From: a virus
IMG/VR virus record: IMGVR_UViG_3300042731_005205
Location: 1 to 21,496 of that record
Strand: one strand, 5' to 3'
Length of the DNA: 21,496 nucleotides
The notes under the pieces were generated by a model. It ran no database searches, had not been told where the DNA came from, and worked only from the letters and a program-made list of their open reading frames with translations. Each line of letters starts with the position of its first letter. The stretch's first letter is position 1. Below are positions 1,936 to 21,496 of the stretch, piece after piece. A program made the position numbers and the translations under genes.

Positions 1936-2866
1936 ACAAATTTCTTCTAAACGGATAATATCAAAGGTATTAACGGATTCAAATATTCAAGAAGAAACCG
2001 TTCGTATTTCTGATATAGTAGAGTGGATTGGAGAAGCTGTAGAAAAGATTGGAGGGTTTGGTCAATATAATATAAAAGTTGCAGGGAAAGAAGGCGAACC
2101 TTTACTAACTGTAAGCAATTATCAGGCAGAGCTTCCAGACGATGTTTATAGAATATTAGGCATTGCATATTCTACTTCTCCTACTGGTAATTTTCTTCCT
2201 CTTAGATATAATTATAATTCTTTTGCAACTCGTCAACCTGTTACTGATTCTTCATCTTCTGGGTTTGTAGCTAGTGAGAGTACTCTTATTCAATTAGCTA
2301 TGGATTTATATAATTTAAGTTACGAAGATGCTTTAGAGTTGATAAATACAGATTCTATTACCAAAGAAAAATTAACCTCTTTGTTGAATATAGATAGTTT
2401 TAGAATTACAGACAATACAACAGATTTTTCATTTGATTATACTTATACTCTTAATAGTAATTATATAAAGTTAAATGTTCGTAACGGGTATTTAATGATA
2501 GCATATCAAGCTATACCTACTGATTCAGACGGATATCCTTTAATACCCGATGACCCGGGTTATATAGAGGCTGTATATTGGTATATAAGAGTTAAACTTT
2601 TGTATCCAGAATGGGTTTCAGGAAGAATAACGGATAGAGTATATTATCATGCTGAACATAAGTGGAATTTTTATTGCAAACAAGCTTATGCAAATGTTAT
2701 TATGCCTAATGCAGATCAGTTAGAAAGTATTAAAAATAAGTGGTTAGAGTTAGTGCCTGAATTAACTGATCATTCTACATTTTTTTCAACTTCTGGTCAA
2801 GAACAGAAAATTTATAATGATACTTTTTATAGAAATAGAGTAAATATTTTAACAGTTGGCTACTAA
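1925..2866 (+). CDS. crAss-like tail tube/ring protein, analogous to P22 gp4
   Basis: I choose the ATG at 1925 (313 residues) over the TTG two codons upstream; it overlaps the previous gene by 11 bases. The N-terminal half has the helix ISDIVEWIGEAVEKIGGFGQY followed by a beta domain containing AELPDDVYRILGIAY. The C-terminal half has the hallmark run PLIPDDPGYIEAVYWYI, then YPEWVSGRITDRVYYHAEHKW, then a final helix with QAYANVIMPNADQLESIKNKW and the polar end LVPELTDHSTFF. This arrangement is the one I know from the crAss-like tail protein compared with the P22 tail accessory factor gp4, a ring between the portal and the rest of the tail. The neighbouring muzzle gene supports this. The exact position in the tail barrel is not determined here. 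Confidence 0.75.
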   Translation: MIYKQISSKRIISKVLTDSNIQEETVRISDIVEWIGEAVEKIGGFGQYNIKVAGKEGEPLLTVSNYQAELPDDVYRILGIAYSTSPTGNFLPLRYNYNSFATRQPVTDSSSSGFVASESTLIQLAMDLYNLSYEDALELINTDSITKEKLTSLLNIDSFRITDNTTDFSFDYTYTLNSNYIKLNVRNGYLMIAYQAIPTDSDGYPLIPDDPGYIEAVYWYIRVKLLYPEWVSGRITDRVYYHAEHKWNFYCKQAYANVIMPNADQLESIKNKWLELVPELTDHSTFFSTSGQEQKIYNDTFYRNRVNILTVGY

Positions 2867-5800
2867 AGTTGTTACACACACTTTTAACGGTGGGATGAAC
2901 AAGGACTTTGATAAAAGTATCATTCCAAATAATTCTTTTTATCATGCTGAAAATTTTAGATTAGTTGCTGATAAAGAAGGTAAGAAGACTATTCTCAAAA
3001 ATAATAAGGGAATGTCTAATACTTATATTAAATTTCCTGTAACTGGAATACCGGTTACTGAGTATATTGTTGGGTATTGTTTAGTTAGGAATTATTTAGT
3101 TGTATTTACTTATGACGGTTCTTCAGTAAGTAGTATATATAAGGTAGAATTAGATGATAATGAAGAATTAGTTTCCGTTAGTACTGTTTTTGCTGATTAT
3201 GATACAGAAGATGGAAGTACTTTAGGGTTTTCTTTAAGTAACAGAGTAAAAGCAGTTGGTCGATATGAGAATGATGATTTAATTAATGTTTATTGGTGTG
3301 ATGGTAGCGAATTAAGTAGAAGAATAAATATTGCTACGAATAATACAACTGACGGACTACCTTATAGTGGAAGTAATGACTATGTATCTGTACATAAATT
3401 AGATTTTATAGATAAAGCCTATCTAAGAAAACCTGTAATAAATAAAATAACTGGTGGAAGTCTTATTACTGGCGTTGTTTATTATGCATATCAGTTTTTT
3501 AATTTGAACGGTAATGAAAGTTTGTATTCTCCCTTATCAGACAAGATAAGCGTTTCTACTTCATCATATGCTTTTGTTGATGCTTCAAAGTTTAGAGGAG
3601 GAGACAGTGGTGAGTATAGTGGAAAAGGGTTTAGACTAAGAATAGAAAATGATGATTCTTATGATTATGTTAGACTAATAAGAATTCATTATGAGGAATA
3701 TAATGGAATTCCTACTATTTCTATTGTTAAGGAAGTCGAAGTAACTACTGGTACTTATTTATATATTACTGATAATGGAGTTACGGTAAGTGAAATAAGT
3801 TTAGAGGATTTTGTAACTTATAGTAATATTTTATTTTCTGCTAAAGAAATTACTACTAAAAATGATTATTTATTATTTGGTAATATAGAAGAAGATACTT
3901 TTGAAGTTGATTTCGATGTTAGGTCTTATAGGTTTAATTCTAGCGGTGTAGCTAAGTTATACCAATCAGATGGAAGTTATTATTATGTATATGCTGCCGG
4001 GGTTACTAGAACAGGTCAAGGAGGTCCAGCTACTTTAGGAGATTGGGAGTACTTTACTTCAGGTTCTGTATATACAGGAACTCATGGAACTGGGTGGACT
4101 GTTCCGGAGGACGCTGACTGTATAAATTATTTTAATAATATTTCAGTTGAAGGGTATTATTATCAAAATGATGCTAGTACAGTTGGGGGTTCTGGATTGA
4201 ATGTAGAGTATGAATTTTTGTATGGTTATGGTTCAAATGTTATAACTATAGAATCTGATGCTTCTGTAACTAAAGGAGATATAAGAACTGGAGGAACTTA
4301 TTCTGCTGGCGATTCTGGCGCAGAAAGTTTAGTGTTGTCTCAAGATGGAGTTAATTCTTATACTACTTATGCTAACCCTTTTAATGAAGATATTGTAGGT
4401 TATCAGCCTGATGAGGTATATCGTTTTGCTGTAGTATGCGGAGATGCTAAAGGGAGAGAAGCTACTGCCAAATGGATTGGGGATATTAGAATGCCTAGGT
4501 TAGAGCATTATGCTTCTGGTAGTAGAATATATAGAAGTGGTACAGATATTGTAGCAAATATATTAAATATAAAGTTTACTATCAGTAATTTACCTAGTGA
4601 TGTAGAATATTTTAGAATAGTTAGAGCTGAAAGGACGAATGTCGATAAATCTGTGGTAGCATGTGGAGCTCTTAGTCATACTTATTATGATTCTGGGTTA
4701 AGTATGTATGTTTCTCCGATTGAAGCTAAATTATCTGGGGCTGCCGGATATTATGGAGGAGATAATCCTGATAATGATTTATTTTCTTTTATGTCCCCAG
4801 AAATAAATTATGGGCAATATCAATATACACAAGGGGATATGTTATATGTTTTATATGTTATGGATGATTATTGTAGTTATTATAGTACAGATAAATCTTT
4901 CATAAAATATAATTCTTATGTAAAACCTGGTACTTCAAATAGGCCTGTTTATGATATTGATGATTTAAAAATTCTTTCACCAAATCCGCCAACAGAAGAT
5001 ACAGAATATTCTATAGGAGTTTTTACTCCTTATGTTCATATGTGTACAGATAAAGGAGCTGATAGTCCTTTTTCAACTGATAAAGGTCCTTGTGGAACAG
5101 CTGCTATTTTAGATCTTACTTCTAATGTTACTGGACCAGATATTTATTATGCTGCTGATTTAACTAACGATCATTCTATATATTATGCTTGTATAAAAAG
5201 AAATGTAGATACTTCAAGATATGGGGGAATAACTTATACAGATAGATTTTTTAATGAATATTATCCCTGTTCAAACAGATATGATTCATCTTATGACGGG
5301 GTTCAGATAACAGTGTATGGAGGAGATTGTTATATAAATATGTTTGATCATCTTCGCTGTACTTATCATATAAATGAATCTTCTGGGGATAGGCGTATTC
5401 ATGTTATGTATTTTCCAGTGGAATCTCAAATTAATCTTGCATATGATCATGGAGATTCTTATCATAGAATAAAGGGTAAAGTTGATGCTACTTGGGTTAG
5501 AGAAACAGCAGGGGAACATGATACTGCTTCTGGAACATTTGTTCAAGATAATGATTATTATTTATATAATACTGTTTATTCAATTGAACCTAAAGTTGAG
5601 TCAAGAATTTCTGAAACTTCTTTAGATTTTGATTTAACTAAATTTGACACAAGGGTATTAGTTTCAGATAAAAAATACAATAATGAAATTAGTGATAGTT
5701 GGACAAAATTTAGAGCAAATAATTTTTTAGATGTTGATAGTAACTATGGAGAGTTAACTAACTTATTTAATTTTAAGGATAAAGTATTTTACTTTCAACC

Positions 5801-6794
5801 AAATGGTTTTGGAGTTCTCTCTGTAAATGAAAGGTCTTTGATTTCTGATAATAATACTAATCAATTAGTATTAGGTACTGGAGGTGTTTTAGATAGGTAT
5901 GATTATATTTCTAATACTTCTGGTTCTTCTAGTAGATTTGGAGTTGTAAAAAGTAAAAGAGGAATTTATTGGATTGATGAGAAACGTAAAGAAGTTTATT
6001 TTTTTAATGGTAATGAAAATAAAATTTCTAAGTTAAAAGGAGTAGATTCATATTTAAAGGGGTTAACTTCAATAGATTCTGTTGAAGGTACTTTTGATAA
6101 TACTTATGATGATGTTTTATTCTCTATAACTAATGATGGGTCGAAGGAAAATACTTTAGTATATAATGAATTAGATGGAGTGTTTTGTCCTTTTTTTACG
6201 TACCAACCTTTTATGTTTATTACGTTAGATAAAAATGTTCTTTCAATTGAGGAACAAAATAGTAGTGGAGTGTATAAACACAATGTTTCAGATACTCGTT
6301 GTAGTTATTATAACAATGGAGTTTCTGATTCAAAGGTTACTTTCATATGTAATGAAAATTATCCATTTATTAAGGTGTGGGACAATATTGAATATTTTTC
6401 AGAAGTTAATTATATAAACGATACTACCGGGGTTAGGAAAAACTTATTTGATACTACGTTTACATATGCAAATTTTTACAATGATTATCAAAATACTGAT
6501 ACATGGGAAATGAAAAGTAATATCAGTATGAACAATAATGTACTTAAAGAACTAGCTTTGAAAAGACGAGAAAGAAATTGGACATTTGGTATTCCAAGAA
6601 ACGCAGTTGATAAAGATGTATCTAATGATCCTGATATTTTTGATTCTTCAAATTTAGATACTACTCAAACTTTTAGAGAAAGAATGAGGAGTTCGTTTTT
6701 ATATTGTAGTTTTATATATGAAAATAATTCTTCTACTGGGTATGAATTTTCTATACCTTATATGAATATTAAATATAGAATATCTAATAGATAA
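2856..6794 (+). CDS. Tail stabilisation/muzzle protein (P22 gp10-like in position)
   Basis: This 1312-residue protein starts at TTG 2856. An in-frame TAA at 2850-2852 excludes an earlier start, and the next ATG would cut into the conserved N-terminus THTFNGGMNKDFDKSIIPNN. Family segments follow in order: the YQPDEVYRFAVVCGDAKGR run ending in WIGDIRMP (residues 515-547), FRIVRAERTNVDKSVVACG (around 590-610), and a beta-propeller-like region (about 936-1045) with DSWTKFRANNF, FYFQPNGFGVLSVNER, LVLGTGGVL (1004-1012) and GIYWIDEKRKEVYFFNG. Residues 370-500 are rich in Gly, Tyr and Ser and less conserved in appearance. In crAss-like phages the homologue, called the stabilisation protein and later the muzzle, closes the distal end of the short tail barrel. 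The gene overlaps its upstream neighbour by 11 bases and the downstream one by one base (TAATG). Confidence 0.88.
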   Translation: MATKVVTHTFNGGMNKDFDKSIIPNNSFYHAENFRLVADKEGKKTILKNNKGMSNTYIKFPVTGIPVTEYIVGYCLVRNYLVVFTYDGSSVSSIYKVELDDNEELVSVSTVFADYDTEDGSTLGFSLSNRVKAVGRYENDDLINVYWCDGSELSRRINIATNNTTDGLPYSGSNDYVSVHKLDFIDKAYLRKPVINKITGGSLITGVVYYAYQFFNLNGNESLYSPLSDKISVSTSSYAFVDASKFRGGDSGEYSGKGFRLRIENDDSYDYVRLIRIHYEEYNGIPTISIVKEVEVTTGTYLYITDNGVTVSEISLEDFVTYSNILFSAKEITTKNDYLLFGNIEEDTFEVDFDVRSYRFNSSGVAKLYQSDGSYYYVYAAGVTRTGQGGPATLGDWEYFTSGSVYTGTHGTGWTVPEDADCINYFNNISVEGYYYQNDASTVGGSGLNVEYEFLYGYGSNVITIESDASVTKGDIRTGGTYSAGDSGAESLVLSQDGVNSYTTYANPFNEDIVGYQPDEVYRFAVVCGDAKGREATAKWIGDIRMPRLEHYASGSRIYRSGTDIVANILNIKFTISNLPSDVEYFRIVRAERTNVDKSVVACGALSHTYYDSGLSMYVSPIEAKLSGAAGYYGGDNPDNDLFSFMSPEINYGQYQYTQGDMLYVLYVMDDYCSYYSTDKSFIKYNSYVKPGTSNRPVYDIDDLKILSPNPPTEDTEYSIGVFTPYVHMCTDKGADSPFSTDKGPCGTAAILDLTSNVTGPDIYYAADLTNDHSIYYACIKRNVDTSRYGGITYTDRFFNEYYPCSNRYDSSYDGVQITVYGGDCYINMFDHLRCTYHINESSGDRRIHVMYFPVESQINLAYDHGDSYHRIKGKVDATWVRETAGEHDTASGTFVQDNDYYLYNTVYSIEPKVESRISETSLDFDLTKFDTRVLVSDKKYNNEISDSWTKFRANNFLDVDSNYGELTNLFNFKDKVFYFQPNGFGVLSVNERSLISDNNTNQLVLGTGGVLDRYDYISNTSGSSSRFGVVKSKRGIYWIDEKRKEVYFFNGNENKISKLKGVDSYLKGLTSIDSVEGTFDNTYDDVLFSITNDGSKENTLVYNELDGVFCPFFTYQPFMFITLDKNVLSIEEQNSSGVYKHNVSDTRCSYYNNGVSDSKVTFICNENYPFIKVWDNIEYFSEVNYINDTTGVRKNLFDTTFTYANFYNDYQNTDTWEMKSNISMNNNVLKELALKRRERNWTFGIPRNAVDKDVSNDPDIFDSSNLDTTQTFRERMRSSFLYCSFIYENNSSTGYEFSIPYMNIKYRISNR

Positions 6795-10911: not shown

Positions 10912-13900
10912 ATGGCTTTAAAATTTCCAGAAGATGAAGTTTTGGGTACGGAACCAGTAGATCCTACTACTGGTTTACTTTTTCCTGAAGATGAACCTTA
11001 TTCGACTTTTACAGGTACAGTAGAAAGTACTTTTGATATAAGGCCTTATAAACGATTTTTTGAAGGGAAAGTACATCCTGAATTTGGCCAAGATTATTTA
11101 GATAGAGTTAGGGCTGAGAGACAATCAGGTACTGAACAATTTGGGGCTTTTCTTAATCAAGCAATTGTTGGGGAAATAGTTGGTGGTACTTTGGAAGGTG
11201 CTGGGTATTTGTTAGATGTTGATCAAACTGTAAATATACTTAACGATGTTGAACAAGATTGGGGTAATTGGTTAAGTGATATAGGTAAAGATCTTCGAAC
11301 TTGGTCACAAGAAGCTACTCCTATTTATACTACATACGAGCCTGGTCAATTTAGACCTGATAAATGGTCTTGGTGGATGTCAAACGGTCCTTCAGTTGCT
11401 AGTACATTGTCTTTATTAGTACCTACATTAGGCGCCACAAAAGGTATTAGTATGTTAGGCAAAGCGGCTGATATATCCTTAAATATGGGTAAGAAGGCTA
11501 AGTGGCTCTCCACTGGTATCGGCCAGGCTGTTGTTTCTAGACTTATGGAGAATGGTATGGAAGCTGCTGGGAAATATGACGAAATTGAACAACGAAATCT
11601 TCAAGCAGGCATGTCTCCTAATGAAGCTAAAAAGAATGCTTCAATTGCTGCTTCAGATATATGGAATAAAAACTGGGTACTTATGGCTCAGGATATTCCA
11701 CAATATTTAATTTTAGGTAAAGCGTTTGGCAAAGCTAGTAAACCTGCTACTTTAGAGATGAGTAAAAGTATGGGGTTTGATTTAAGCCCTATTTTAGCTC
11801 GTAAGGGGGCACTTCTTTTAGAAGATGCTATTACAGAAGGTGGTGAAGAAGTAATGCAGTATATCGTCTCTGAGAACGCTGATTACTTGTCTCGTGCTTC
11901 ATTAGACCCCACTGTTACAAAAAAATCAATTAGTGATTATTTAGGGGAAGGTGAGTTATGGACTAGTTTTACTATGGGAGCTTTAGGGTCTACAGTATTT
12001 CAAACTGTTGGTAGACGTATAAATAAAGCTATATTTGGGGAAGATCCGGTTGACCAGGCTAGAATTAATAATATTAATACTTGGGCTCCCTTAATAAAGT
12101 TATATGGTACATCTGCTAGGATAGCTGAAGAGAGGGGTGATATTTTAGGAGCTCAATCTTTGAAAGTTAGGCATGCTTCTGAAATGGCTGCCAAAGCTTC
12201 AGAAGTAGGTAACTTACAATTTTCTATAGATTTTCTTACTGCTATAAAAAATGCATCAACTGAAGAATTACAAAATTTTAATTTAGATGAAGCAGATGCC
12301 GAGTTTATAAAAACTAATTATGATGAGCTAGTAGATGTTACTAAGAAGGTAGGAAATTATTTTGAATCTTATACTAAAGATAATTATGATTTTGACATAG
12401 CTTCAAGATTAGCAAGAGCTGAAGTTGAACGAGAATTATTAATGGAACTATCAGAAAAGTATAGGGGAGAAGCTCAAGCATTAAATTCTAAGATACCAAT
12501 TTATACAGATAAGGATGATAAAGGTAATTCTATACTATCTATTACTGGTAAAACATTAGTAAATTTATCTAGTCAACTTGCTCGTAAATGGAGGATTCTT
12601 ACTCAAACAAATATTTCTTTAAAAAGTGATTATATTGATAATCCCGTTTATTATCAAAATAGGGGAGGAGAAATTGAAAAGGAAATTCTTGACCTAAAGA
12701 AAGAAATTTCAAAAATATATATAGATGAATACAGTAATGAAGACAAGAAGAAAGATTCAAAATATTTAAACATTTCAAAAAAAGGAGATAGTGTTTATAT
12801 AAATATAAGAGAGGATAAAGAATTTACTCCTTTTAAAGATCAACAAGAATTATATGCAAAAGCAGATTTCACCAGAGAAGGAGCTCTTATACAAGAAAAT
12901 ACAATAAAAGCTCAGAAAGAATTACAAGCTGAACGTAATGCTGGTACAAAACAAAAGCCTGTTACACCAACGGAGCCTGTTACAGAACCTGAAGAAAAGC
13001 CTGTAGTTAAGCCTGAAGAAATTTCTGAAGAACAGCGTGTTGCTGATATTGAAAATCGTAGGCGTATTACAAATGAAAATTTTTATGTAGAACAAGATGA
13101 AAAAGGATTATATGAGTACTATATTAATCCTGAAGGAAGAACCGAAGAAATAAGGGGAAAATCAGAAAAGGATATACGTGATAAAATAAACGCTAAGTAT
13201 GACGCAGAATTAGAAGAAATTAAACCAGGAATTAAAGAAAAAAGGAAAAAAACAAAAGAAAAAGCTGAGAATATAATTAAAAAAGAACCTGCTAAAGCAG
13301 CTAAAAATCTTTTAATTTCTACTCCTTTTAGTAAGATAGAAGATATATCTTCTATTGTTGGTACTAAAGTTACATATGCAAATAAGGAGTGGCAAGTTGT
13401 AACAGATGGTTCTGAAGTTTTATTGGAAGATGAAAAAGGTAGTAGGTATTTTGTTGCTTACTCCAATGCTGATATTTCTTTAGAGAGTAAAGGCATACAA
13501 CCTATTCAAGGGGATGAAATTTTTGATATAAAAGTATCTATTATTACTGATAACGTAGGATTGAATATTCAAGGTAAAGAACATACTTTTGCTACTTATA
13601 ATATATTAGAATCAATTACTGAAGATAAAGAAGGTAATCCTATTTTTGTTACCTTACTAGATGATAAAAAAAATAAAGTAACTTATGAAGCAGTTGATAA
13701 TGATAATTTAGTGAATGAAATAGCTTCAGCTATTGCTATAATAGAAGAATCTAGGGTAGCTGCTTTAAACAAGTTTAGGGAATCTGAACAACATCCTGTA
13801 TTTTATAAATTTGAAAATAAAGAGTATAGGGTATATTATAATGGTAGAAATTGGTTACCTGTTAGTCTTTCTTCAAGGGTTGTCATGAAAGATTCTCCAT

Positions 13901-16900
13901 TTAAGAAAAGATTATTAAATAACTTTTTTACGGATTTAAATATTATTATAAACGATGAAATTACCGAAAATATTAGACAAGGATCTTCGAAAGAAATTAA
14001 TAACTCTCCCGACGTTACAGCGTTATTTATATCTGAGGAAGATACAATTAAAAAGGTTGAGTCGACTACTGAATCCAGGGATAAAGGGTCAAAGTCTGCA
14101 AAGGATGTAGTTGATGCTAAAGCAGAAAGTTTAACTGACGCTTTATTAGAAGCAGAGGCTATGGCGGAACAACGAGCCTTTGAGGCTTCATTAGAAGGTT
14201 ATAGAGACATTGAAGTAACTGATGAAGTCCCCGTTATTACAAAAGATCAAACGTACGTGTATGAGCCTGAAAATAACCTCTATGGCGATTTTACTCAATT
14301 GGTATATTTAGCTAATAAAGAAAAGGAATTAAATGAGTATTTATCAAATCCAGATAATGATTTAAAAAATAATTATATAGAATTTGAGATAGATTATGAT
14401 TCTGATTATGCTAAAGAATGGTGGGCAAATAAAACAGAGTTAAAAACTAAAGTTCAAAAAGGAAATAAATTTGTTTTAGAGATTGAAGATATAAATAATT
14501 ATAACTCATTCATAGACGAAGTTCCTGTAATAGGTAAATTGTATGATTCAAAAGGTAATCAAATAGAAGGACATCTTTATTTACGTAGATCTTCTAATAC
14601 AGATGTACTTAGTCCTGAAAAGTATCAGGGAGATATAAGAGATAAAACTAGGGAAGTAAGATCAAAAGTACTAAATTCTATTTTAGAAGGTAATAAAGTA
14701 AGAATTAAAAGACTTAGTAAAGATAGGGGTTACCCAAATGTTGTAGCTGAAAATATTTTAGTAAAGGATGCTCTGCGTATAGATACTTCAAAAGCTGAGT
14801 TAGGTGTTAGTACAAAAGATGGTAGTATAAGGGGATTGAATAATGAAATATTTGAAGGTATAAGTAGTTCTACTGGGGGTAATGTTTTTATAAGAACTAA
14901 TTTAACTAGTAACAAAGAATATAGAGCGTTAAATTTAAACCCTAGTAAACTTTCTAATGAGCATGCCGGTGTAGTATTTGATGTATTTTCTAACTTACTG
15001 TCAAGACCTGGGACAAGGCCCAGTGTTAAACGTCAAATAAAAGTTGCAAATGTAGAAGGGTTAGCTACAGCTGAAAAAATACTAGATTTATTAGTTAATT
15101 ATGGACCCCATACTAAACAAAAGAAAACGGTAGTTAATCCGAATCTCATTGACAAACAGTTGTATTATGAAGGGAAAGTTTTACATTATGGCAACAAATC
15201 TTTTAACTTTGTTGGCAAGAATGAAAACCAAATAGCACAAGAGAGACAAAAATTTATTGATTGGGCTGTAATATATAAAAACTATGGGATTAGTTTTAAT
15301 CATTTTGGTACTACTTTTGAGAATAATTTTTCAATAGGTTCGTTAAAAGGTAAAGAAGGACAAACCTATGAAAGTTATGTATTAGATAATGGTTTTGTAA
15401 AAACTAATGCAAGATATAATCTTAAGACTAATAGTGCTTATCATAAGCCAGCTTTGTTTGTACATTTTGATAATATTAATTCTACTGAAACTATAACTGA
15501 AAAACCTACTAAAGAAGAAGAAAAACCGAAAGGGGAAACTTTAGATGATATTAGAAATGAGTTTTGGAGTATCAATCATTTTTATAAAAAGGAAGTAGAT
15601 TACCAAAAGATAGATTTAAATAAAGAATTAAAACATGTAAAACGTCAAATTGGCAAAAATGTTTCAATTCAAGTAGTTAATGATTTAATTAGGGTTTCAA
15701 ATGAAATTGGTAATGAAACTGCTTTTGGGTTAGTAAAAAATGCTGCTATAAAAATAAGTACAGAAGCCAAAGAAGGTACTGGGTATCATGAGGCTTTTCA
15801 TTTTGTAACTTTATATTATTTGACTGATAAGCAACGAGCTGAACTTTATGATGACGCTAGGTTATCATATAATTTAGGAGAATCTTCTGATAAATATGTT
15901 AATGAAAAATTAGCGGAAGAATATGAAATTTATATACTGACTAATCAAAAAGTAAAACCTTTATCTGAGAAGATAGCAGATTTTTTTGCAAAATTATGGA
16001 ATTTTATTAAGTCTGTATTCGTAGATAATACTAAGATTTCTGATTTAACAGTTAAAAAATTATTTAAATCTATTGAACAAAATAAATTTTCAAGAGCTAA
16101 GGTTAAACCAGAAAATTTAGAAAAGTTTGGGAGTATAGACTATCTTAAAAAAATAGCTGGATTTAATAATGAACAAATACGTAATATTACTAGTGGTTTA
16201 ATATATCAAGTATTAGTTTTAAATGGTGTAAGTAATATTAATAATATAGATAACATAAAATATCAGCCTGTATATGATTGGGTATTAAATAGAAAAAATA
16301 GATTTAAAGAATTAGCTGAAAAAATTTCTAAAGATAAAAGTAGACAAGAGGAATATAAAGAAACAATTAGGTTACAAGAAGTATATCAAGACATATTAAA
16401 CAATTTTCCAAAATTTGTCGAATATATGGATGATATGTTACTTGGAATGAATATTCATAAAAGGATAGAAAATGATGAAGATGATGTAGCTGCTTATAAC
16501 GATGAAAATGAGGATTATGAATCAAATAATTTTGAAAAATATCAAAAAGCTTCCTATGAGTATTCAGGTAGAGACAACATACTTTCTAATATAAAGATGT
16601 TTATTGCTACTATACCTGTTGAAAGAAAGATAGATTCATACTCAGCTATGCCTATATTTGAAGATTTTAATACATCATGGTCTAAATTGATGTTTTTACT
16701 TTGGAATTCTTCAAATATATATGAAATGATAGATACCTTAAAATTAAAAGCTAATAATTCAACAGATGATTATTACAATACTCTATTGTATGGCATAACA
16801 AATGCTAAAGGAGATTTAATAAAGCCTGGTTTAATAAATGGAGATGAGGAGTTGAGGACTCAGTTTCAGGTATCTGTTATGAAACATCGTCATAATTTTA

Positions 16901-19900
16901 TAAACTTTTTATACAACAAGAATACAAAAGGGATGTTAGTAGTTGATGCTAACGTACGAAAACTTTCAAGTCAGTATTTGTTTGATTGGAATAATAGATT
17001 AGTAGAAGATGATGCTTTTTTTGAAGGTTCTGAACGAAAATATAATAAACAACATTTGTTAAAAATTATTTCAGAATATACTTCCTTTTCAAAGATAGTA
17101 CGTGAAGAATTTTCTAGGAATGGTTTAACTTTACCTAACATACAACAACATACTACAAAATTATTATCTTTATTAAATAAGTTACATATAAATATAACAG
17201 AGGATACTTTAGTAGCTTTTCTTACTCAAAAGAAAGGAAGTTACGATAAAAATTTTATTGATTTATTAAGCGGTAAAAATTCTTTAGAACTTGTTTTTGG
17301 TACTAAGGGCACTTTATGGAAATTGTTTTCAAATCAAAATGTACCTAAAAATGCGACTATAGATAATGTTTATAGTTATGAAAGTATTATAAGGGATTTT
17401 GCTAATTTACAGGCTGAACTTTCACCTGATGCATTAGATGATACTATATTAGGTCCTGACAATAACATATATTATGTTTACTCACAGAATACTTATTTAA
17501 CAGATACTCTAAGGGATTTAGTAAAAGATCCTGATTTAATTACTAAAAGAAGTAAAGTTGTTTACAATAAAAATTCTAGGTTTTATAAGGAATTAATCGA
17601 AGGTACTAAACCTCAAGTTACTACAATGTCAGCTCTTAGAATTCCTGGTATATCTAATACTGGGTATTTAGAGTTATCTAGGGATATGGATTATTTAGTA
17701 AAACTTAATGCGGTTTTACAGGGTTATTTACCATTACCTACTTTAGCTGACAGGCGTTCATTTTTCTTTTATAAGGGATTTAAAACATTAAAAGAAGAAT
17801 TTTCTGACATACAATTAGACGAGAAAGGTAATATAGTAATACCTAAAAAAGTAATAGATGTTTTTAAAGGGTATGCAGAAGATGAGTATAATAGGATAAA
17901 TCAAGCAAAACAACAAATTGAAGACGCTAAGAAGAACGGATATAAAGGTTTAATAGAGAATTATCATTATGAAAAATTTGATAGTTATGGTAACCCTGTT
18001 GAAGGTAATGCTTTAAAATTTGTTTTATTTAAAGAGTTTAATAAAACAACTTATAATTTAAATAAAGTAGAAAAAATAATAAAAGATAGAATTAGAGATT
18101 CTTTGAATTATGCTAAAGAATTAGGGGTTATTAATATTAAATTAATTGGTGGAAAAGAAATATATACAAATAATTTACTTGATAAAAAAGTAATAAAAGG
18201 TTATAAAGATAAGTATGGATTAGGGGAAAGTGAAGCAATATACACAATAATTAGTGAATTTACTACTTCTTATATGATGTCTATTATTGAAACTCAAAAG
18301 TTGTTATCAGGCGATCCTGCTTTTTATAAACATAGTAAAGTTAATGGTGATATTGTTGATGACTTTATTAAAAGAGTTAGTGTGCTAGCTGCTCCTGGAG
18401 ATAATTACAGGACAGACTATAAAGAAGGAGAATTTGCTGGTAAAACTAAGTATAATGTAGTTACGTTGGCTACTCAAAAATATAATAGTGAAGAAATATA
18501 TAATAAATTAAAACCAAAATTTATAAAATTATTAAAAAAAATAGACCCAAATATATCCGATCAAGCAGCTCTATTATTAGCCGAAGATAAATTGAAAGCT
18601 TATAAAAATGTAGATGTAACTGATGCTCAGGTGTATATTACTCCTGAGTTTTATAGAGAGCTTTCTATTAGAATAGGAGAATGGTCTAAAGGTAAACAGG
18701 ATGCTTTTGACTTATTAATGTCTGATAAAGAATTAACTCCAGAAGAAGAGTTGAAAGCTTCAGGAGTAATAATGCAACCTCTTAAGCCGGTATATTTTGG
18801 AATCGAACAAACAAACAATTTAAATATACCTGTATATGACAAAATGTCAATGGCTGTTTTATTACCTAGATATATAGATAAAAAATCAAAAATAAGACCT
18901 CTTATTGATAAGATGAGAGAAGAAGGGATTGATGTCGTTAAATTTGATTCTGCTGTTAAAGTTGGTAATAGGGACAGTATAAAGTATTTTAAATCTGATG
19001 GTAGTGTTAATACTACAGCTTTAAAAGATATTAAAAAGGTAGTTCATAAACAAAGTTTTAGAAATTTAAGAAGACAACAAATAACTGATGTACATGAAGC
19101 TTCTAAAAGATTAATTGGAACGCAGCTTAGAAAAATGGTATACGCTAACCTTCATCTTGAAAAAGAAGTATATAAATTTAGAGGTAGAGATATTACAGGT
19201 AAAGAATTAGCTAATATAATTAGTAAAACATTTAATGCGTTATCAAATAAAGGCAAAGCTGAATTTAAAGAAAAACTAGGTATAGATGAAAACGATAAAG
19301 TAGATGAAGTTAAACTTCGTCGAATGTTAAGAAGTGATGCTGTTAAAGGTAATATGCCTTATAATGTTATAGAAGCTTTAGAAGAAGGAATTCAGTTAGA
19401 CACTTTACCAGATAGAAAATGGGTAGAGAGTAGACTTATTGCTCTTAATACTAAACATACTATTCATTTAAAATCAAAAGGGGATGCATACATTCAAGTA
19501 TCAAACTTTGGACTACATACTGTAGAAAGCGATAGACTAAATTTAATAGATTCTTCTGGTAAAATGGAAGTAATGATGTCTGTACAAATGTTTAAAGATG
19601 TTATTCCTAATTACAATAAAAAGACTTTTGAACAAAAGAAGAAATGGTTAGAGAAGAATTTAGAAGGAATTGGTTATCGTATTCCTACTCAAGGACCTAA
19701 TTCTGTTGTTGTATTTTCAGTTAAAGATTTTTTGCCAGAAAATACAGGTAATACCATTATATTACCATCAGAATTTACTGCATTAACAGGGTCTGACTTT
19801 GATATTGATAAGATATTTATAGCTCGTTATAATTATAACAGAAAAGGAAATAAGGTAGAATTTATTGAAGGGGATGAAGGTGATTTAGTTACAGAGGCTT

Positions 19901-21496
19901 CTACTTGGGAACGTATATACCAACAATTATATCAAGATAAAATATTTTTAAGGGAAGAGTTACAAGAAGTAAAAGAAAAAGTAGCTTCAAAAATATTACT
20001 TAATAAAGAAAAATATGGTATTTTATTTGCTGAAGAATTAACAAATGAGAATTATAAAAGTATGGTAAATACTTTAATGTCTTTACGACAAGAAGTATTA
20101 GATGATTGGAATATTAAAAATATAACCCCCGAACAAGTAGATTCATTACTTGAAGATTTAAATAAAATTCCTGATTTTGATGAATGGGTTAATAAAAATA
20201 AAAAAACTTCTGTTTATGATTTAAATTCGAAAGAAGCTGTAGAAAACAGATTATTAGATACTATGTTTACAGTATTTACTAATGAGGAACATTTAATGGA
20301 TACTAAAACTCCTTTAGATCGTTTTACTAGTGATTTGAAAGAAATAGCTAGTGAATTAAAAAAATTAGAAGGAAAAACTAAATCTTTACAGTCATTAGAA
20401 GGAATAGCTCCAACATATCAAATAGAAGCTAAAGTTAATTATACGGAAGGTAAAGGGGGTATTGGGCCATTTGCATTAAATAATGTTCATCACGCATTAG
20501 CTCAAATATCTGATTTAAAGATAAAATTTAGGGAATATTTTAAAGATGGAAGTTTTAGGGAATTTCTTATAGGCAATAATGACGGTAAGTGGGTAAATGT
20601 AGGAGGAATAATTGGTAAAGACGGTATAAATATATTAGATTGGTTTTCAGCTCTAATTAGTGCTCATGTTGATGTAGCTAAAGATCCTTATATTTTTGAT
20701 ATAAATGTAGTACCAACTACTTATAATGTTGTTTCATTGTTACTTCGATCAGGTATTGGTAAGAATACTTTTTGGTTTATAAATCAACCTCTTATAAAAG
20801 ATAACAAATATGATTTGGAAGATAAAAATAAGCTTTATAATATTGCTGAAAAAAATAAACTTAAGGCAGTATATCTTGCTAAAAAGGAAGGTATGTCTAA
20901 GGAAGATGTAGAAAAAATATTTAATTATAATGCTTTACCAAAGAATGCTTTAGGATACAGTGAAAATACTTATAAGAATTTTATAAAAGGTGATAAAGAT
21001 TGGAAGTGGTATGCTACTCAAGGAGGTTTATTAAAAGCATACGCTAGAATGCTTGAGCCTGCTAATTTATTAAGTAAAATAGTATTAAGTACTAGAACTG
21101 ATACTAGAGGAATAGGTAAAAATTTAGCTGCTGTAAAAAGATATAATGTAAATTTAGAAGAATTAATGTTAAGAGATGATGTTCTAAATCTTGATAAGTT
21201 TATGAATGAATCTTTCTTACAAACTTTTCATGATAATAGTGCGGCTTACATTTCTACTGTATATTCAGGGTTAATGATATCTTCAACTAAACAATTTAAT
21301 ACATTAGTAGATAGGATTATAAGTGATACAAATGTAAATAGTCGAAATCCTCGTATTATGAAAGTAATAGAAGATGAATTATTTACTTCTATAGTATCAG
21401 AATATTTTACTTCACTTGATGGTTTCGGTTTATCTAAAGAAGATATATTAAATTTATTTGAAGGTAAAAATTCTTTACCAAAAAGATTATATGATT
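10912..21496 (+). CDS. Giant cargo-metallopeptidase-RNA polymerase fusion protein (3' truncated)
   Basis: From ATG 10912 the frame stays open to the right edge: 3528 codons with no in-frame TAA, TAG or TGA (checked line by line), and the gene continues beyond the window. The parts in order are: Gly-rich hydrophobic cargo-like segments (about 70-365); a helical charged region; a Pro/Glu/Lys linker (680-709); a beta-rich module (about 800-1045); a Ser/Lys/Glu linker with a helix (1048-1098); a further module to about 1525; a second Pro/Glu/Lys linker (1526-1543); a HEAFH domain (1544-1703); and a crAss-type RNA polymerase from roughly 1700 on, with LPTLADRRS (2275-2283), GDPAFYK (2467-2473), FDSAVK (2678-2683), IGTQLRK (2735-2741), IGYRIPTQGPNS (2920-2931), DFDID (2962-2966), AHVDVAKDP (3251-3259) and RTDTRGIGK (3395-3403). 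Relatives such as gp66 of phage phi14:2 are packaged in the virion and transcribe early genes after ejection. That role is inferred here. Confidence 0.9.
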   Translation, partial: MALKFPEDEVLGTEPVDPTTGLLFPEDEPYSTFTGTVESTFDIRPYKRFFEGKVHPEFGQDYLDRVRAERQSGTEQFGAFLNQAIVGEIVGGTLEGAGYLLDVDQTVNILNDVEQDWGNWLSDIGKDLRTWSQEATPIYTTYEPGQFRPDKWSWWMSNGPSVASTLSLLVPTLGATKGISMLGKAADISLNMGKKAKWLSTGIGQAVVSRLMENGMEAAGKYDEIEQRNLQAGMSPNEAKKNASIAASDIWNKNWVLMAQDIPQYLILGKAFGKASKPATLEMSKSMGFDLSPILARKGALLLEDAITEGGEEVMQYIVSENADYLSRASLDPTVTKKSISDYLGEGELWTSFTMGALGSTVFQTVGRRINKAIFGEDPVDQARINNINTWAPLIKLYGTSARIAEERGDILGAQSLKVRHASEMAAKASEVGNLQFSIDFLTAIKNASTEELQNFNLDEADAEFIKTNYDELVDVTKKVGNYFESYTKDNYDFDIASRLARAEVERELLMELSEKYRGEAQALNSKIPIYTDKDDKGNSILSITGKTLVNLSSQLARKWRILTQTNISLKSDYIDNPVYYQNRGGEIEKEILDLKKEISKIYIDEYSNEDKKKDSKYLNISKKGDSVYINIREDKEFTPFKDQQELYAKADFTREGALIQENTIKAQKELQAERNAGTKQKPVTPTEPVTEPEEKPVVKPEEISEEQRVADIENRRRITNENFYVEQDEKGLYEYYINPEGRTEEIRGKSEKDIRDKINAKYDAELEEIKPGIKEKRKKTKEKAENIIKKEPAKAAKNLLISTPFSKIEDISSIVGTKVTYANKEWQVVTDGSEVLLEDEKGSRYFVAYSNADISLESKGIQPIQGDEIFDIKVSIITDNVGLNIQGKEHTFATYNILESITEDKEGNPIFVTLLDDKKNKVTYEAVDNDNLVNEIASAIAIIEESRVAALNKFRESEQHPVFYKFENKEYRVYYNGRNWLPVSLSSRVVMKDSPFKKRLLNNFFTDLNIIINDEITENIRQGSSKEINNSPDVTALFISEEDTIKKVESTTESRDKGSKSAKDVVDAKAESLTDALLEAEAMAEQRAFEASLEGYRDIEVTDEVPVITKDQTYVYEPENNLYGDFTQLVYLANKEKELNEYLSNPDNDLKNNYIEFEIDYDSDYAKEWWANKTELKTKVQKGNKFVLEIEDINNYNSFIDEVPVIGKLYDSKGNQIEGHLYLRRSSNTDVLSPEKYQGDIRDKTREVRSKVLNSILEGNKVRIKRLSKDRGYPNVVAENILVKDALRIDTSKAELGVSTKDGSIRGLNNEIFEGISSSTGGNVFIRTNLTSNKEYRALNLNPSKLSNEHAGVVFDVFSNLLSRPGTRPSVKRQIKVANVEGLATAEKILDLLVNYGPHTKQKKTVVNPNLIDKQLYYEGKVLHYGNKSFNFVGKNENQIAQERQKFIDWAVIYKNYGISFNHFGTTFENNFSIGSLKGKEGQTYESYVLDNGFVKTNARYNLKTNSAYHKPALFVHFDNINSTETITEKPTKEEEKPKGETLDDIRNEFWSINHFYKKEVDYQKIDLNKELKHVKRQIGKNVSIQVVNDLIRVSNEIGNETAFGLVKNAAIKISTEAKEGTGYHEAFHFVTLYYLTDKQRAELYDDARLSYNLGESSDKYVNEKLAEEYEIYILTNQKVKPLSEKIADFFAKLWNFIKSVFVDNTKISDLTVKKLFKSIEQNKFSRAKVKPENLEKFGSIDYLKKIAGFNNEQIRNITSGLIYQVLVLNGVSNINNIDNIKYQPVYDWVLNRKNRFKELAEKISKDKSRQEEYKETIRLQEVYQDILNNFPKFVEYMDDMLLGMNIHKRIENDEDDVAAYNDENEDYESNNFEKYQKASYEYSGRDNILSNIKMFIATIPVERKIDSYSAMPIFEDFNTSWSKLMFLLWNSSNIYEMIDTLKLKANNSTDDYYNTLLYGITNAKGDLIKPGLINGDEELRTQFQVSVMKHRHNFINFLYNKNTKGMLVVDANVRKLSSQYLFDWNNRLVEDDAFFEGSERKYNKQHLLKIISEYTSFSKIVREEFSRNGLTLPNIQQHTTKLLSLLNKLHINITEDTLVAFLTQKKGSYDKNFIDLLSGKNSLELVFGTKGTLWKLFSNQNVPKNATIDNVYSYESIIRDFANLQAELSPDALDDTILGPDNNIYYVYSQNTYLTDTLRDLVKDPDLITKRSKVVYNKNSRFYKELIEGTKPQVTTMSALRIPGISNTGYLELSRDMDYLVKLNAVLQGYLPLPTLADRRSFFFYKGFKTLKEEFSDIQLDEKGNIVIPKKVIDVFKGYAEDEYNRINQAKQQIEDAKKNGYKGLIENYHYEKFDSYGNPVEGNALKFVLFKEFNKTTYNLNKVEKIIKDRIRDSLNYAKELGVINIKLIGGKEIYTNNLLDKKVIKGYKDKYGLGESEAIYTIISEFTTSYMMSIIETQKLLSGDPAFYKHSKVNGDIVDDFIKRVSVLAAPGDNYRTDYKEGEFAGKTKYNVVTLATQKYNSEEIYNKLKPKFIKLLKKIDPNISDQAALLLAEDKLKAYKNVDVTDAQVYITPEFYRELSIRIGEWSKGKQDAFDLLMSDKELTPEEELKASGVIMQPLKPVYFGIEQTNNLNIPVYDKMSMAVLLPRYIDKKSKIRPLIDKMREEGIDVVKFDSAVKVGNRDSIKYFKSDGSVNTTALKDIKKVVHKQSFRNLRRQQITDVHEASKRLIGTQLRKMVYANLHLEKEVYKFRGRDITGKELANIISKTFNALSNKGKAEFKEKLGIDENDKVDEVKLRRMLRSDAVKGNMPYNVIEALEEGIQLDTLPDRKWVESRLIALNTKHTIHLKSKGDAYIQVSNFGLHTVESDRLNLIDSSGKMEVMMSVQMFKDVIPNYNKKTFEQKKKWLEKNLEGIGYRIPTQGPNSVVVFSVKDFLPENTGNTIILPSEFTALTGSDFDIDKIFIARYNYNRKGNKVEFIEGDEGDLVTEASTWERIYQQLYQDKIFLREELQEVKEKVASKILLNKEKYGILFAEELTNENYKSMVNTLMSLRQEVLDDWNIKNITPEQVDSLLEDLNKIPDFDEWVNKNKKTSVYDLNSKEAVENRLLDTMFTVFTNEEHLMDTKTPLDRFTSDLKEIASELKKLEGKTKSLQSLEGIAPTYQIEAKVNYTEGKGGIGPFALNNVHHALAQISDLKIKFREYFKDGSFREFLIGNNDGKWVNVGGIIGKDGINILDWFSALISAHVDVAKDPYIFDINVVPTTYNVVSLLLRSGIGKNTFWFINQPLIKDNKYDLEDKNKLYNIAEKNKLKAVYLAKKEGMSKEDVEKIFNYNALPKNALGYSENTYKNFIKGDKDWKWYATQGGLLKAYARMLEPANLLSKIVLSTRTDTRGIGKNLAAVKRYNVNLEELMLRDDVLNLDKFMNESFLQTFHDNSAAYISTVYSGLMISSTKQFNTLVDRIISDTNVNSRNPRIMKVIEDELFTSIVSEYFTSLDGFGLSKEDILNLFEGKNSLPKRLYD
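11119..11460 (+). other. Gly-rich hydrophobic N-terminal segments of the giant protein
   Basis: Residues 70-183 contain FGAFLNQAIVGEIVGGTLEG with a further GAGYLLD (glycine-zipper-like spacing), an aromatic cluster (KWSWWMSNGP), and the apolar run PSVASTLSLLVPTLGATKG. None looks like a standard signal peptide. Similar segments in phage internal proteins are thought to interact with membranes during DNA delivery, so a role in crossing the host envelope is plausible but unproven here. Confidence 0.4.
12949..13038 (+). other. Pro/Glu/Lys/Thr-rich inter-module linker 1
   Basis: Residues 680-709 are almost only Pro, Glu, Lys, Val and Thr (KPVTPTEPVTEPEEKPVVKP and on). This is low-complexity, surely disordered sequence that separates the N-terminal cargo-like module from the next module. 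It could be a flexible tether or a cleavage region. Confidence 0.6.
15487..15540 (+). other. Pro/Glu/Lys-rich inter-module linker 2
   Basis: Residues 1526-1543 (ETITEKPTKEEEKPKGET) resemble linker 1 in composition and stand directly before the HEAFH domain. This marks a domain border and, speculatively, a place where the metallopeptidase-polymerase part could be separated from the upstream modules. Confidence 0.6.
15541..16020 (+). other. Zincin-type metallopeptidase domain (HEAFH) within the giant protein
   Basis: The segment leads through AFGLVKNAAIKIS into GTGYHEAFHFVTLYYL. HEAFH (15787-15801, residues 1626-1630) is a full HExxH zinc-binding and catalytic motif in a hydrophobic helix. About 40 residues later the helix EKLAEEYEIYIL offers Glu1669 or Glu1670 as a third, gluzincin-like zinc ligand. 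It is followed by ADFFAKLWNFIKSVF, a short amphipathic helix. All residues needed for activity are present, but the substrate is unknown; self-processing, cleavage of other virion proteins or a host target are all possible. Confidence 0.7.
18781..19140 (+). other. Probable first double-psi beta-barrel region of the RNA polymerase
   Basis: Residues 2624-2743 carry KPVYFGIEQ, PVYDKMSMAVLLPRYI, IDVVKFDSAVK, SFRNLRRQQ and IGTQLRK. In two-barrel polymerases the barrel before the catalytic Asp barrel supplies Lys/Arg residues to the active site. The conserved basic and Lys positions here (for example K2683 in SAVK and R2740/K2741) are candidates. The assignment rests on position before the DFDID barrel and on family resemblance; a structure prediction would settle it. 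Confidence 0.45.
19621..19851 (+). other. Catalytic double-psi beta-barrel of RNA polymerase (DFDID)
   Basis: Residues 2904-2980 read IGYRIPTQGPNSVVVF, then about 30 residues, then LTGSDFDIDKIFIARY. DFDID (19795-19809; Asp2962, 2964, 2966) matches the catalytic triad of crAss-like virion RNA polymerases and corresponds to DFDGD of cellular beta' subunits and DxDGD of QDE-1-like RNA polymerases. The upstream RIPT parallels the R-PT motif that precedes NADFDGD in beta'. The spacing and hydrophobic strands fit an intact Mg2+-binding barrel, so the enzyme is probably active. Confidence 0.85.

What the first reader, a model, noticed from the sequence alone, without database searches (positions are those of the whole stretch)
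15787..15801. Intact HExxH zinc protease motif embedded directly before the RNA polymerase
HEAFH in a hydrophobic helix, preceded by GTGY and followed about 40 residues later by AEEYE, has every residue expected for a gluzincin-like active site. A protease inside a polyprotein that also carries disordered linkers suggests self-cleavage releasing the polymerase, or cleavage of other ejected proteins or a host factor after infection.
Basis: partly seen in the sequence, partly recalled or inferred. Interest (0 to 1): 0.7.

Follow-up and report, generated by a model that had tools for sequence, protein, structure and literature searches.

The report
Zinc-protease domain beside phage RNA polymerase
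A giant protein of a crAss-like phage carries a genuine zinc-protease-type domain just ahead of the RNA polymerase it injects into bacteria; the domain is conserved across this abundant phage group, but relatives show that its main job is probably not to cut the polymerase free.

Summary
HEAFH lies at 15787-15801 (residues 1626-1630 of a 3,527+ aa ORF, 10912-21495) of a crAss-like phage. It is the only HExxH in that protein (0.03 expected by composition), and H, E, H are kept in all 95 relatives first collected.

One correction: the third zinc ligand is almost certainly E1665 (15904-15906; 95/95), not a Glu of AEEYE.

AlphaFold (pLDDT 84) gives a zincin core; nearly all 50 top structural matches are zincins, led by Pro-Pro endopeptidases, lethal factor and IrrE. 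No Pfam, PHROG or NCBIfam model recognises it.

The domain sits on the seam (~residue 1756) between a gp47-like cargo protein and the virion RNA polymerase. In Suoliviridae-type phages both are fused. In Steigviridae the domain ends a separate gp47, and the polymerase is another gene, sometimes on the opposite strand. In one phage it starts the polymerase gene. phi14:2 lacks it.

Self-cleavage to free the polymerase is therefore not supported as its main job: active sites persist where nothing is fused, and about a third of sampled relatives are fused yet carry HExxE, almost always with Lys/Arg beside the third ligand.

Best reading: an ejected zincin, probably active here, perhaps also structural or regulatory. 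Similar fusions are known in N4-like phages.

The parts
10912..21495 (+). Giant ORF (3,527 aa, runs off the window): gp47-like cargo part + seam zincin + virion RNA polymerase
   Evidence: residues 2385-3443 match 6VR4 (phi14:2 vRNAP) E 9.9e-61
15427..15543 (+). Pro/Glu/Lys-rich flexible linker upstream of the zincin (residues 1506-1544)
   Evidence: composition scan; AlphaFold pLDDT 37-52 for residues 1506-1535
15544..16128 (+). Seam zincin module (residues 1545-1739)
   Evidence: alignments A1, A3; AlphaFold pLDDT 84, pTM 0.77
15775..15786 (+). GTGY, conserved G..Y before HExxH
   Evidence: G 84/95, Y or F 95/95
15787..15801 (+). HEAFH (H1626, E1627, H1630): two zinc ligands and general base (predicted)
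   Evidence: 95/95 in the first set; the second H is replaced by E in a subset of later relatives
15904..15906 (+). E1665: predicted third zinc ligand
   Evidence: E in 95/95, 158/160; in register with the 'EExxAExF' Glu of Pro-Pro endopeptidase
15913..15927 (+).
   Evidence: E1669: E74 D17 N4
16129..16149 (+). Predicted short hinge (residues 1740-1746) between zincin module and polymerase
   Evidence: pLDDT below 50 at these residues
16177..16182 (+). Gene-fission seam (residues ~1756/1757): alignment of split gp47 C-terminus ends here, phi14:2 vRNAP alignment begins here
   Evidence: HMM coordinates 161 / 162
16180..21494 (+). Virion RNA polymerase part (residues 1757-3527, incomplete)
19789..19812 (+). 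GSDFDIDK: DxDxD metal-binding motif of the polymerase
   Evidence: invariant D78, D80, D82 in A2

Best explanation
It is a zincin (gluzincin-type HExxH metallopeptidase) domain of a crassvirus-wide family. Zinc is held by H1626, H1630 and E1665, with E1627 as general base. It is built into the cargo protein that the virion ejects with its RNA polymerase, on the seam between the gp47-like part and the polymerase. In this phage the site is complete, so the domain most likely works as a peptidase once the unfolded cargo has passed the tail and refolded in the host. Its substrate is most likely something other than the seam itself: a host protein or another ejected cargo protein. Shown: the domain, its fold class by prediction, conservation of the active-site residues, the seam position, and presence in both split and fused genes. 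Inferred: zinc binding, peptidase activity, time of action and substrate.
For: Active site invariant over very divergent sequences (21-43% identity to the window in A3), with non-circular checks. The AlphaFold model has helix, three strands, HExxH helix and Glu helix, the zincin/MPTase core described in PMC5512222. VIA-align matches: PPEP-2 Z 6.7, PPEP-3 6.6, lethal factor 6.4, IrrE 6.1, ArdC 5.0; nearly every row is a zincin. Same domain with intact site in phages with separate polymerase genes, so function does not depend on fusion. Homologous proteins gp47, gp49 and gp50 are virion cargo in phiCrAss001 (PMC10172136, PMC6235969). Where the seam domain is absent, other HExxH motifs usually occur in the same cargo proteins (8 of 9 untruncated cases), and 72 of 140 HExxH loci carry a further HExxH in a large ORF, so a peptidase in the ejected set seems to be favoured.
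Against: No activity, zinc content or substrate is known for any crassvirus copy. The HExxE subgroup keeps the fold under purifying selection (median dN/dS 0.175), which shows that the fold can be kept for something other than standard zinc catalysis. All structural Z-scores are below 8, and Foldseek against PDB gave nothing significant. The recombinant HExxH-bearing N4 vRNAP shows no degradation, and its HExxH-bearing CTD inhibits the polymerase allosterically (PMC12633501).
Confidence: 0.5

Rival explanations
1. Non-catalytic or regulatory module: the zincin fold is kept as a structural hinge, chaperone-like or autoinhibitory element beside the polymerase (as the HExxH-bearing CTD of N4 vRNAP inhibits its polymerase), and catalysis is optional or lost.
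For: HExxE replaces HExxH in 20 of 65 RNAP-led relatives, at least 3 forced switches on the tree, with K/R beside the third ligand in 94 of 95 HExxE sequences and 0 of 145 HExxH sequences; the fold stays under purifying selection; N4 CTD autoinhibits vRNAP (PMC12633501).
Against: The window and the majority of relatives keep H, E, H, E almost without exception, which a purely structural role does not explain; the HExxE form is confined to part of the tree.
Confidence: 0.28
2. Self-processing: the domain cuts its own chain, at the 1740-1756 hinge or the 1506-1544 linker, and frees the polymerase.
For: The domain lies on the seam where genes are split in relatives; flexible stretches lie on both sides; phage P1 DdrB with an MPTase domain is processed before packaging (PMC5512222).
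Against: Active site kept where gp47 and polymerase are separate genes, even on opposite strands; fused proteins exist with HExxE or without the domain at the seam; phiCrAss001 virion bands at 270 and >300 kDa (PMC6235969); the region after the zincin is continuous and conserved rather than a long linker; N4 vRNAP is packaged unprocessed (PMC5512222).
Confidence: 0.19
3. Chance HExxH in a helical protein, no zincin.
For: No Pfam, PHROG or NCBIfam hit for the window.
Against: Conservation in 95/95, predicted zincin topology and almost exclusively zincin structural matches.
Confidence: 0.02

Closest known systems
N4-like (Schitoviridae) virion RNA polymerase with HExxH C1 domain / MPTase
   Same: Giant ejected vRNAP chain that carries an HExxH zincin next to the polymerase (PMC5512222, PMC12633501; HExxH at N4 residue 2228)
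   Different: N4 zincin is C-terminal to a T7-type polymerase and of the 'LIHELVHAST' type; the crassvirus profile does not align significantly with it (hhalign prob 7%, 32 columns); the crassvirus polymerase is two-barrel
Pro-Pro endopeptidases (PPEP-1/2/3) and lethal factor C-domain (MEROPS M34, Pfam ATLF)
   Same: Best structural neighbours (Z up to 6.7) with HExxH and the EExxAExF Glu in register
   Different: 11-17% identity, secreted proteases or toxins, sequence match not significant (E ~0.5)
Polyvalent-protein MPTase (Pfam PF18818, ArdC-type)
   Same: Zincin in multidomain ejected or transferred proteins; ArdC is a structural neighbour (Z 5.0-5.4)
   Different: PF18818 does not hit any member of A1 or A3
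'Putative RNAP associated protein fused to zincin protease', crAssphage sp. ctbg_1 (BFVD A0A345MT41)
   Same: A zincin in a crAss RNAP-associated protein is already annotated
   Different: That match is weak (E 0.73, TM 0.27); which zincin it holds was not determined here
P23-45 gp96 tail-tape-fused vRNAP
   Same: DFDGD two-barrel polymerase and a metallopeptidase domain in one giant virion protein (PMC10770324)
   Different: Tape measure protein; no relation of the peptidase was tested

Membership tests
Zincin / gluzincin superfamily | HExxH on an active-site helix | tested here: met
Zincin / gluzincin superfamily | Third ligand Glu on the next core helix | tested here: met
   E1665 invariant in 95 loci, in helix 125-145 of the model; geometry not measured, no coordinates
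Zincin / gluzincin superfamily | Three-stranded sheet with N-terminal helix | tested here: met
   compared with the description in PMC5512222
Zincin / gluzincin superfamily | Bound zinc and peptidase activity | not testable with these tools
   needs protein
M34 / ATLF (lethal factor, PPEP) | Pfam PF07737 above cut-off | tested here: not met
   one of 14 members at E 0.0011, below cut-off; window none
M34 / ATLF (lethal factor, PPEP) | Same fold | tested here: inconclusive
   Z 6.7 / 6.4, top of the list but below 8
Polyvalent MPTase PF18818 | Pfam PF18818 match | tested here: not met
   no member of A1 or A3
N4 vRNAP C1 / MPTase | Sequence profile similarity | tested here: not met
Crassvirales virion RNA polymerase cargo | Homology to phi14:2 vRNAP with DxDxD | tested here: met
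   E 9.9e-61 to 6VR4; GSDFDIDK
Crassvirales virion RNA polymerase cargo | Crassvirus structural genes nearby | tested here: met
   muzzle protein PF25731 E 9e-202 at 2856-6794
Self-cleaving polyprotein | Processing products in virion or cell | not testable with these tools
   only indirect: phiCrAss001 gel bands of full-length size (PMC6235969)

The most novel reading that the evidence does not exclude
The crassvirus seam zincin is an evolutionary on/off switch. The zinc site is repeatedly exchanged for a Glu/Lys(Arg) pair (HExxH + E beside the third ligand, versus HExxE + K/R) while the fold stays under selection. The fold would then serve as a regulatory or structural element of the ejected polymerase, as the N4 CTD does, with proteolysis an optional extra.
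Probability: 0.28. Interest if true: 0.7.

Novelty: new variant of a known kind. Interest (0 to 1): 0.5.

Why it matters
Crassviruses dominate the human gut virome, and how their virion polymerase is delivered and switched on is open. The data give a defined domain with exact predicted catalytic residues and natural experiments: split and fused genes, HExxH and HExxE, presence and absence. The idea of a protease inside the injected polymerase complex thus becomes directly testable in cultured phages. They also show that placing a zincin beside a virion polymerase recurs in unrelated phage lineages.

Tried and rejected
Pfam, PHROGs and NCBIfam on the whole protein and on the domain gave no family. 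Single-sequence retrieval in IMG/VR found nothing; alignment-led retrieval worked. The idea that phi14:2 vRNAP (6VR4) starts with the zincin was tested and rejected: it lacks the domain. Foldseek against PDB gave only non-significant, meaningless matches. A long cleavable linker between zincin and polymerase was looked for and not found; only a predicted 7-residue hinge. Whether HExxE loci are rescued by another HExxH was checked: 7 of 20 have one nearby versus 72 of 140 for HExxH loci, so no sign of compensation. Independent-pair tests of the HExxE-K/R coupling have too few events for significance (2-0-1 and 3-0-1 on starred branches).

Full report
What the window is. The window is a 21,496-base virus record. 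The ORF at 2856-6794 is a crassvirus muzzle protein (PF25731, E 9e-202), followed by two cargo-type proteins and a giant ORF at 10912-21495 that runs off the end. [quoted passage not shown]), and GSDFDIDK at 2960-2967 is its metal motif.

The motif. HEAFH is residues 1626-1630, exactly at the coordinates given. It is the only HExxH in the protein, against 0.028 expected by composition. tblastn finds 68 phage records; the annotated ones that were opened are Crassvirales. Alignment-led retrieval found 329 IMG/VR relatives, of which the best 80 were taken. Over 95 aligned loci H1626, E1627, H1630 and E1665 are 95/95 and A1668 is 94/95, while E1669 of AEEYE is E/D/N. The 21 loci that match only the downstream pattern all have HExxH.

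Fold. AlphaFold on 80 aligned sequences gives pLDDT 84 and pTM 0.77, with helix 34-45, strands 50-54, 71-74 and 77-81, the HExxH helix 88-101 and the helix 125-145 that holds E1665 (residue 130 of the model). This is the zincin core as described for polyvalent-protein metallopeptidases (PMC5512222). VIA-align lists PPEP-2 (Z 6.7, rmsd 4.1, 126 aligned), PPEP-3, lethal factor, IrrE (6.1), ArdC (5.0) and other zincins; Z is below 8, so this supports the fold class, not a family. A profile search of PDB sequences weakly (E ~0.5) aligns HExxH and the EExxAExF Glu with PPEP. No coordinates were available to measure ligand geometry.

The seam. In Suoliviridae (cr4_1, cr1_1, cr118_1, cr60_1 and others) the domain is inside a gene of about 4,300-4,900 aa with the polymerase. 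In Steigviridae (Kehishuvirus, Kahnovirus) and in Dulem virus 41 it is at the C-terminal end of a separate gp47-like gene, with the polymerase in another gene, on the opposite strand in Kehishuvirus. Of 20 loci with the domain near a complete C-terminus, 17 have HExxH 148-290 residues before the stop. In L084 the domain starts the polymerase gene. phi14:2 lacks the domain: its gp47-like protein ends in what looks by eye like a GNAT motif, and its polymerase can be aligned only from window residue ~1757. Split gp47 proteins align up to ~1756. AlphaFold of 1506-1945 puts a low-confidence hinge at 1740-1746 and disorder at 1506-1528. The stretch after the zincin is otherwise continuous and moderately conserved.

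Test of the self-cleavage idea. If the domain existed to free the polymerase, it should decay where genes are split and be intact where they are fused. Neither holds. Split phages keep H, E, H, E. Sampling through the polymerase motif instead of the zincin (80 loci, some on contigs already fetched) gave 65 with the domain, of which 20 carry HExxE; 19 of those 20 are fused. Of the 15 without it, six are cut off upstream, five have a different HExxH upstream of the polymerase motif (two near-identical loci at the same distance), two have one downstream in the same ORF, one has one in the upstream gene, and L142 has none. The phiCrAss001 virion gel has bands at 270 and >300 kDa (PMC6235969), as expected for unprocessed gp47 and gp50 (262.5 and 276.9 kDa; PMC10172136); the text does not say which band held which protein. 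N4 vRNAP, with its own HExxH domain, is packaged unprocessed (PMC5512222), and the recombinant protein shows no degradation; its C-terminal part inhibits the polymerase (PMC12633501).

The HExxE form. In 240 sequences, 95 have HExxE. In 94 of these the residue before the third ligand is K or R; in 145 HExxH sequences it never is. The exception, L098, has HExxE and the third Glu changed to His. These counts are inflated by a second retrieval seeded with HExxE sequences; the frequency estimate is the 20 of 65 above. On a tree with both columns masked the best tree needs 8 changes, at least 4 forced, so the switch happened several times, but there are too few independent events for a significant coupling test (3-0-1). 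HExxE domains are under purifying selection (median dN/dS 0.175, 306 pairs; HExxH 0.106, 25 pairs). A plausible reading, not shown, is that a Lys/Arg-Glu bridge replaces the zinc.

More zincins. Of 140 HExxH loci, 72 have a further HExxH in a large ORF, often of the 'LLHExxHAxT' kind and often in the gene after the polymerase. One such domain reaches ATLF E 2e-5 and another MPTase-PolyVal 0.006, both below cut-off. The N4 motif (LIHELVHAST) looks like this kind and not like the seam domain.

Verdict. The domain is a real zincin of a family that Pfam, PHROGs and NCBIfam do not recognise. The concept, a zincin beside a virion polymerase, is known from N4-like phages, and a zincin-fused RNAP-associated protein is already annotated in a crAssphage record. 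Not found described in the papers searched: the seam position, its survival across gene fusion and fission, and the coupled HExxE form; the paper library is partial (the 2018 and 2021 primary papers on crAss transcription were not held). Most likely it is an ejected peptidase with a substrate other than the seam (0.5). A regulatory or structural role is the main rival (0.28), self-processing next (0.19).

Noticed in passing
L098, L131, L133, L136, L145, L146, L148 and others; L178-L257: HExxE instead of HExxH in the seam zincin, coupled with K/R before the third ligand (94 of 95 versus 0 of 145); L098 instead has the third Glu changed to His.
   Followed up: partly
L003:19067-19786, L012:21230-21949, L123:13926-14645 and similar: Second zincin of 'LLHExxHAxT' kind, mostly in the gene after the polymerase, resembling the N4 vRNAP motif; no Pfam model above cut-off.
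   Followed up: partly
L110, L139, L140, L159, L160: The seam domain is missing, but a different HExxH (HEILH, HEITH, HEVVH, HEVGH) lies upstream of the polymerase motif: possible non-orthologous replacement.
   Followed up: partly
L097:6543-11936 (phi14:2 gp78): C-terminus of the gp47-like protein ends in a GNAT-like motif (RRKGIASSVYQFM) where other phages have the zincin; judged by eye only.
   Followed up: no
[quoted passage not shown] its first residues (MACTYNYKG) resemble the start of phi14:2 vRNAP (MACKIENIKYKG), which lacks the zincin.
   Followed up: no
L002, L007, L008, L011, L013, L014 giant genes: 38-70 in-frame TAG codons in the giant gene, open when TAG is read as a residue (known TAG recoding in delta crAss-like phages); the window ORF needs no recoding.
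   Followed up: no
window 12865-13326 and 13999-14151 (residues 652-805 and 1030-1080): Further Pro/Glu/Lys-rich disorder-like linkers in the gp47-like part.
   Followed up: no
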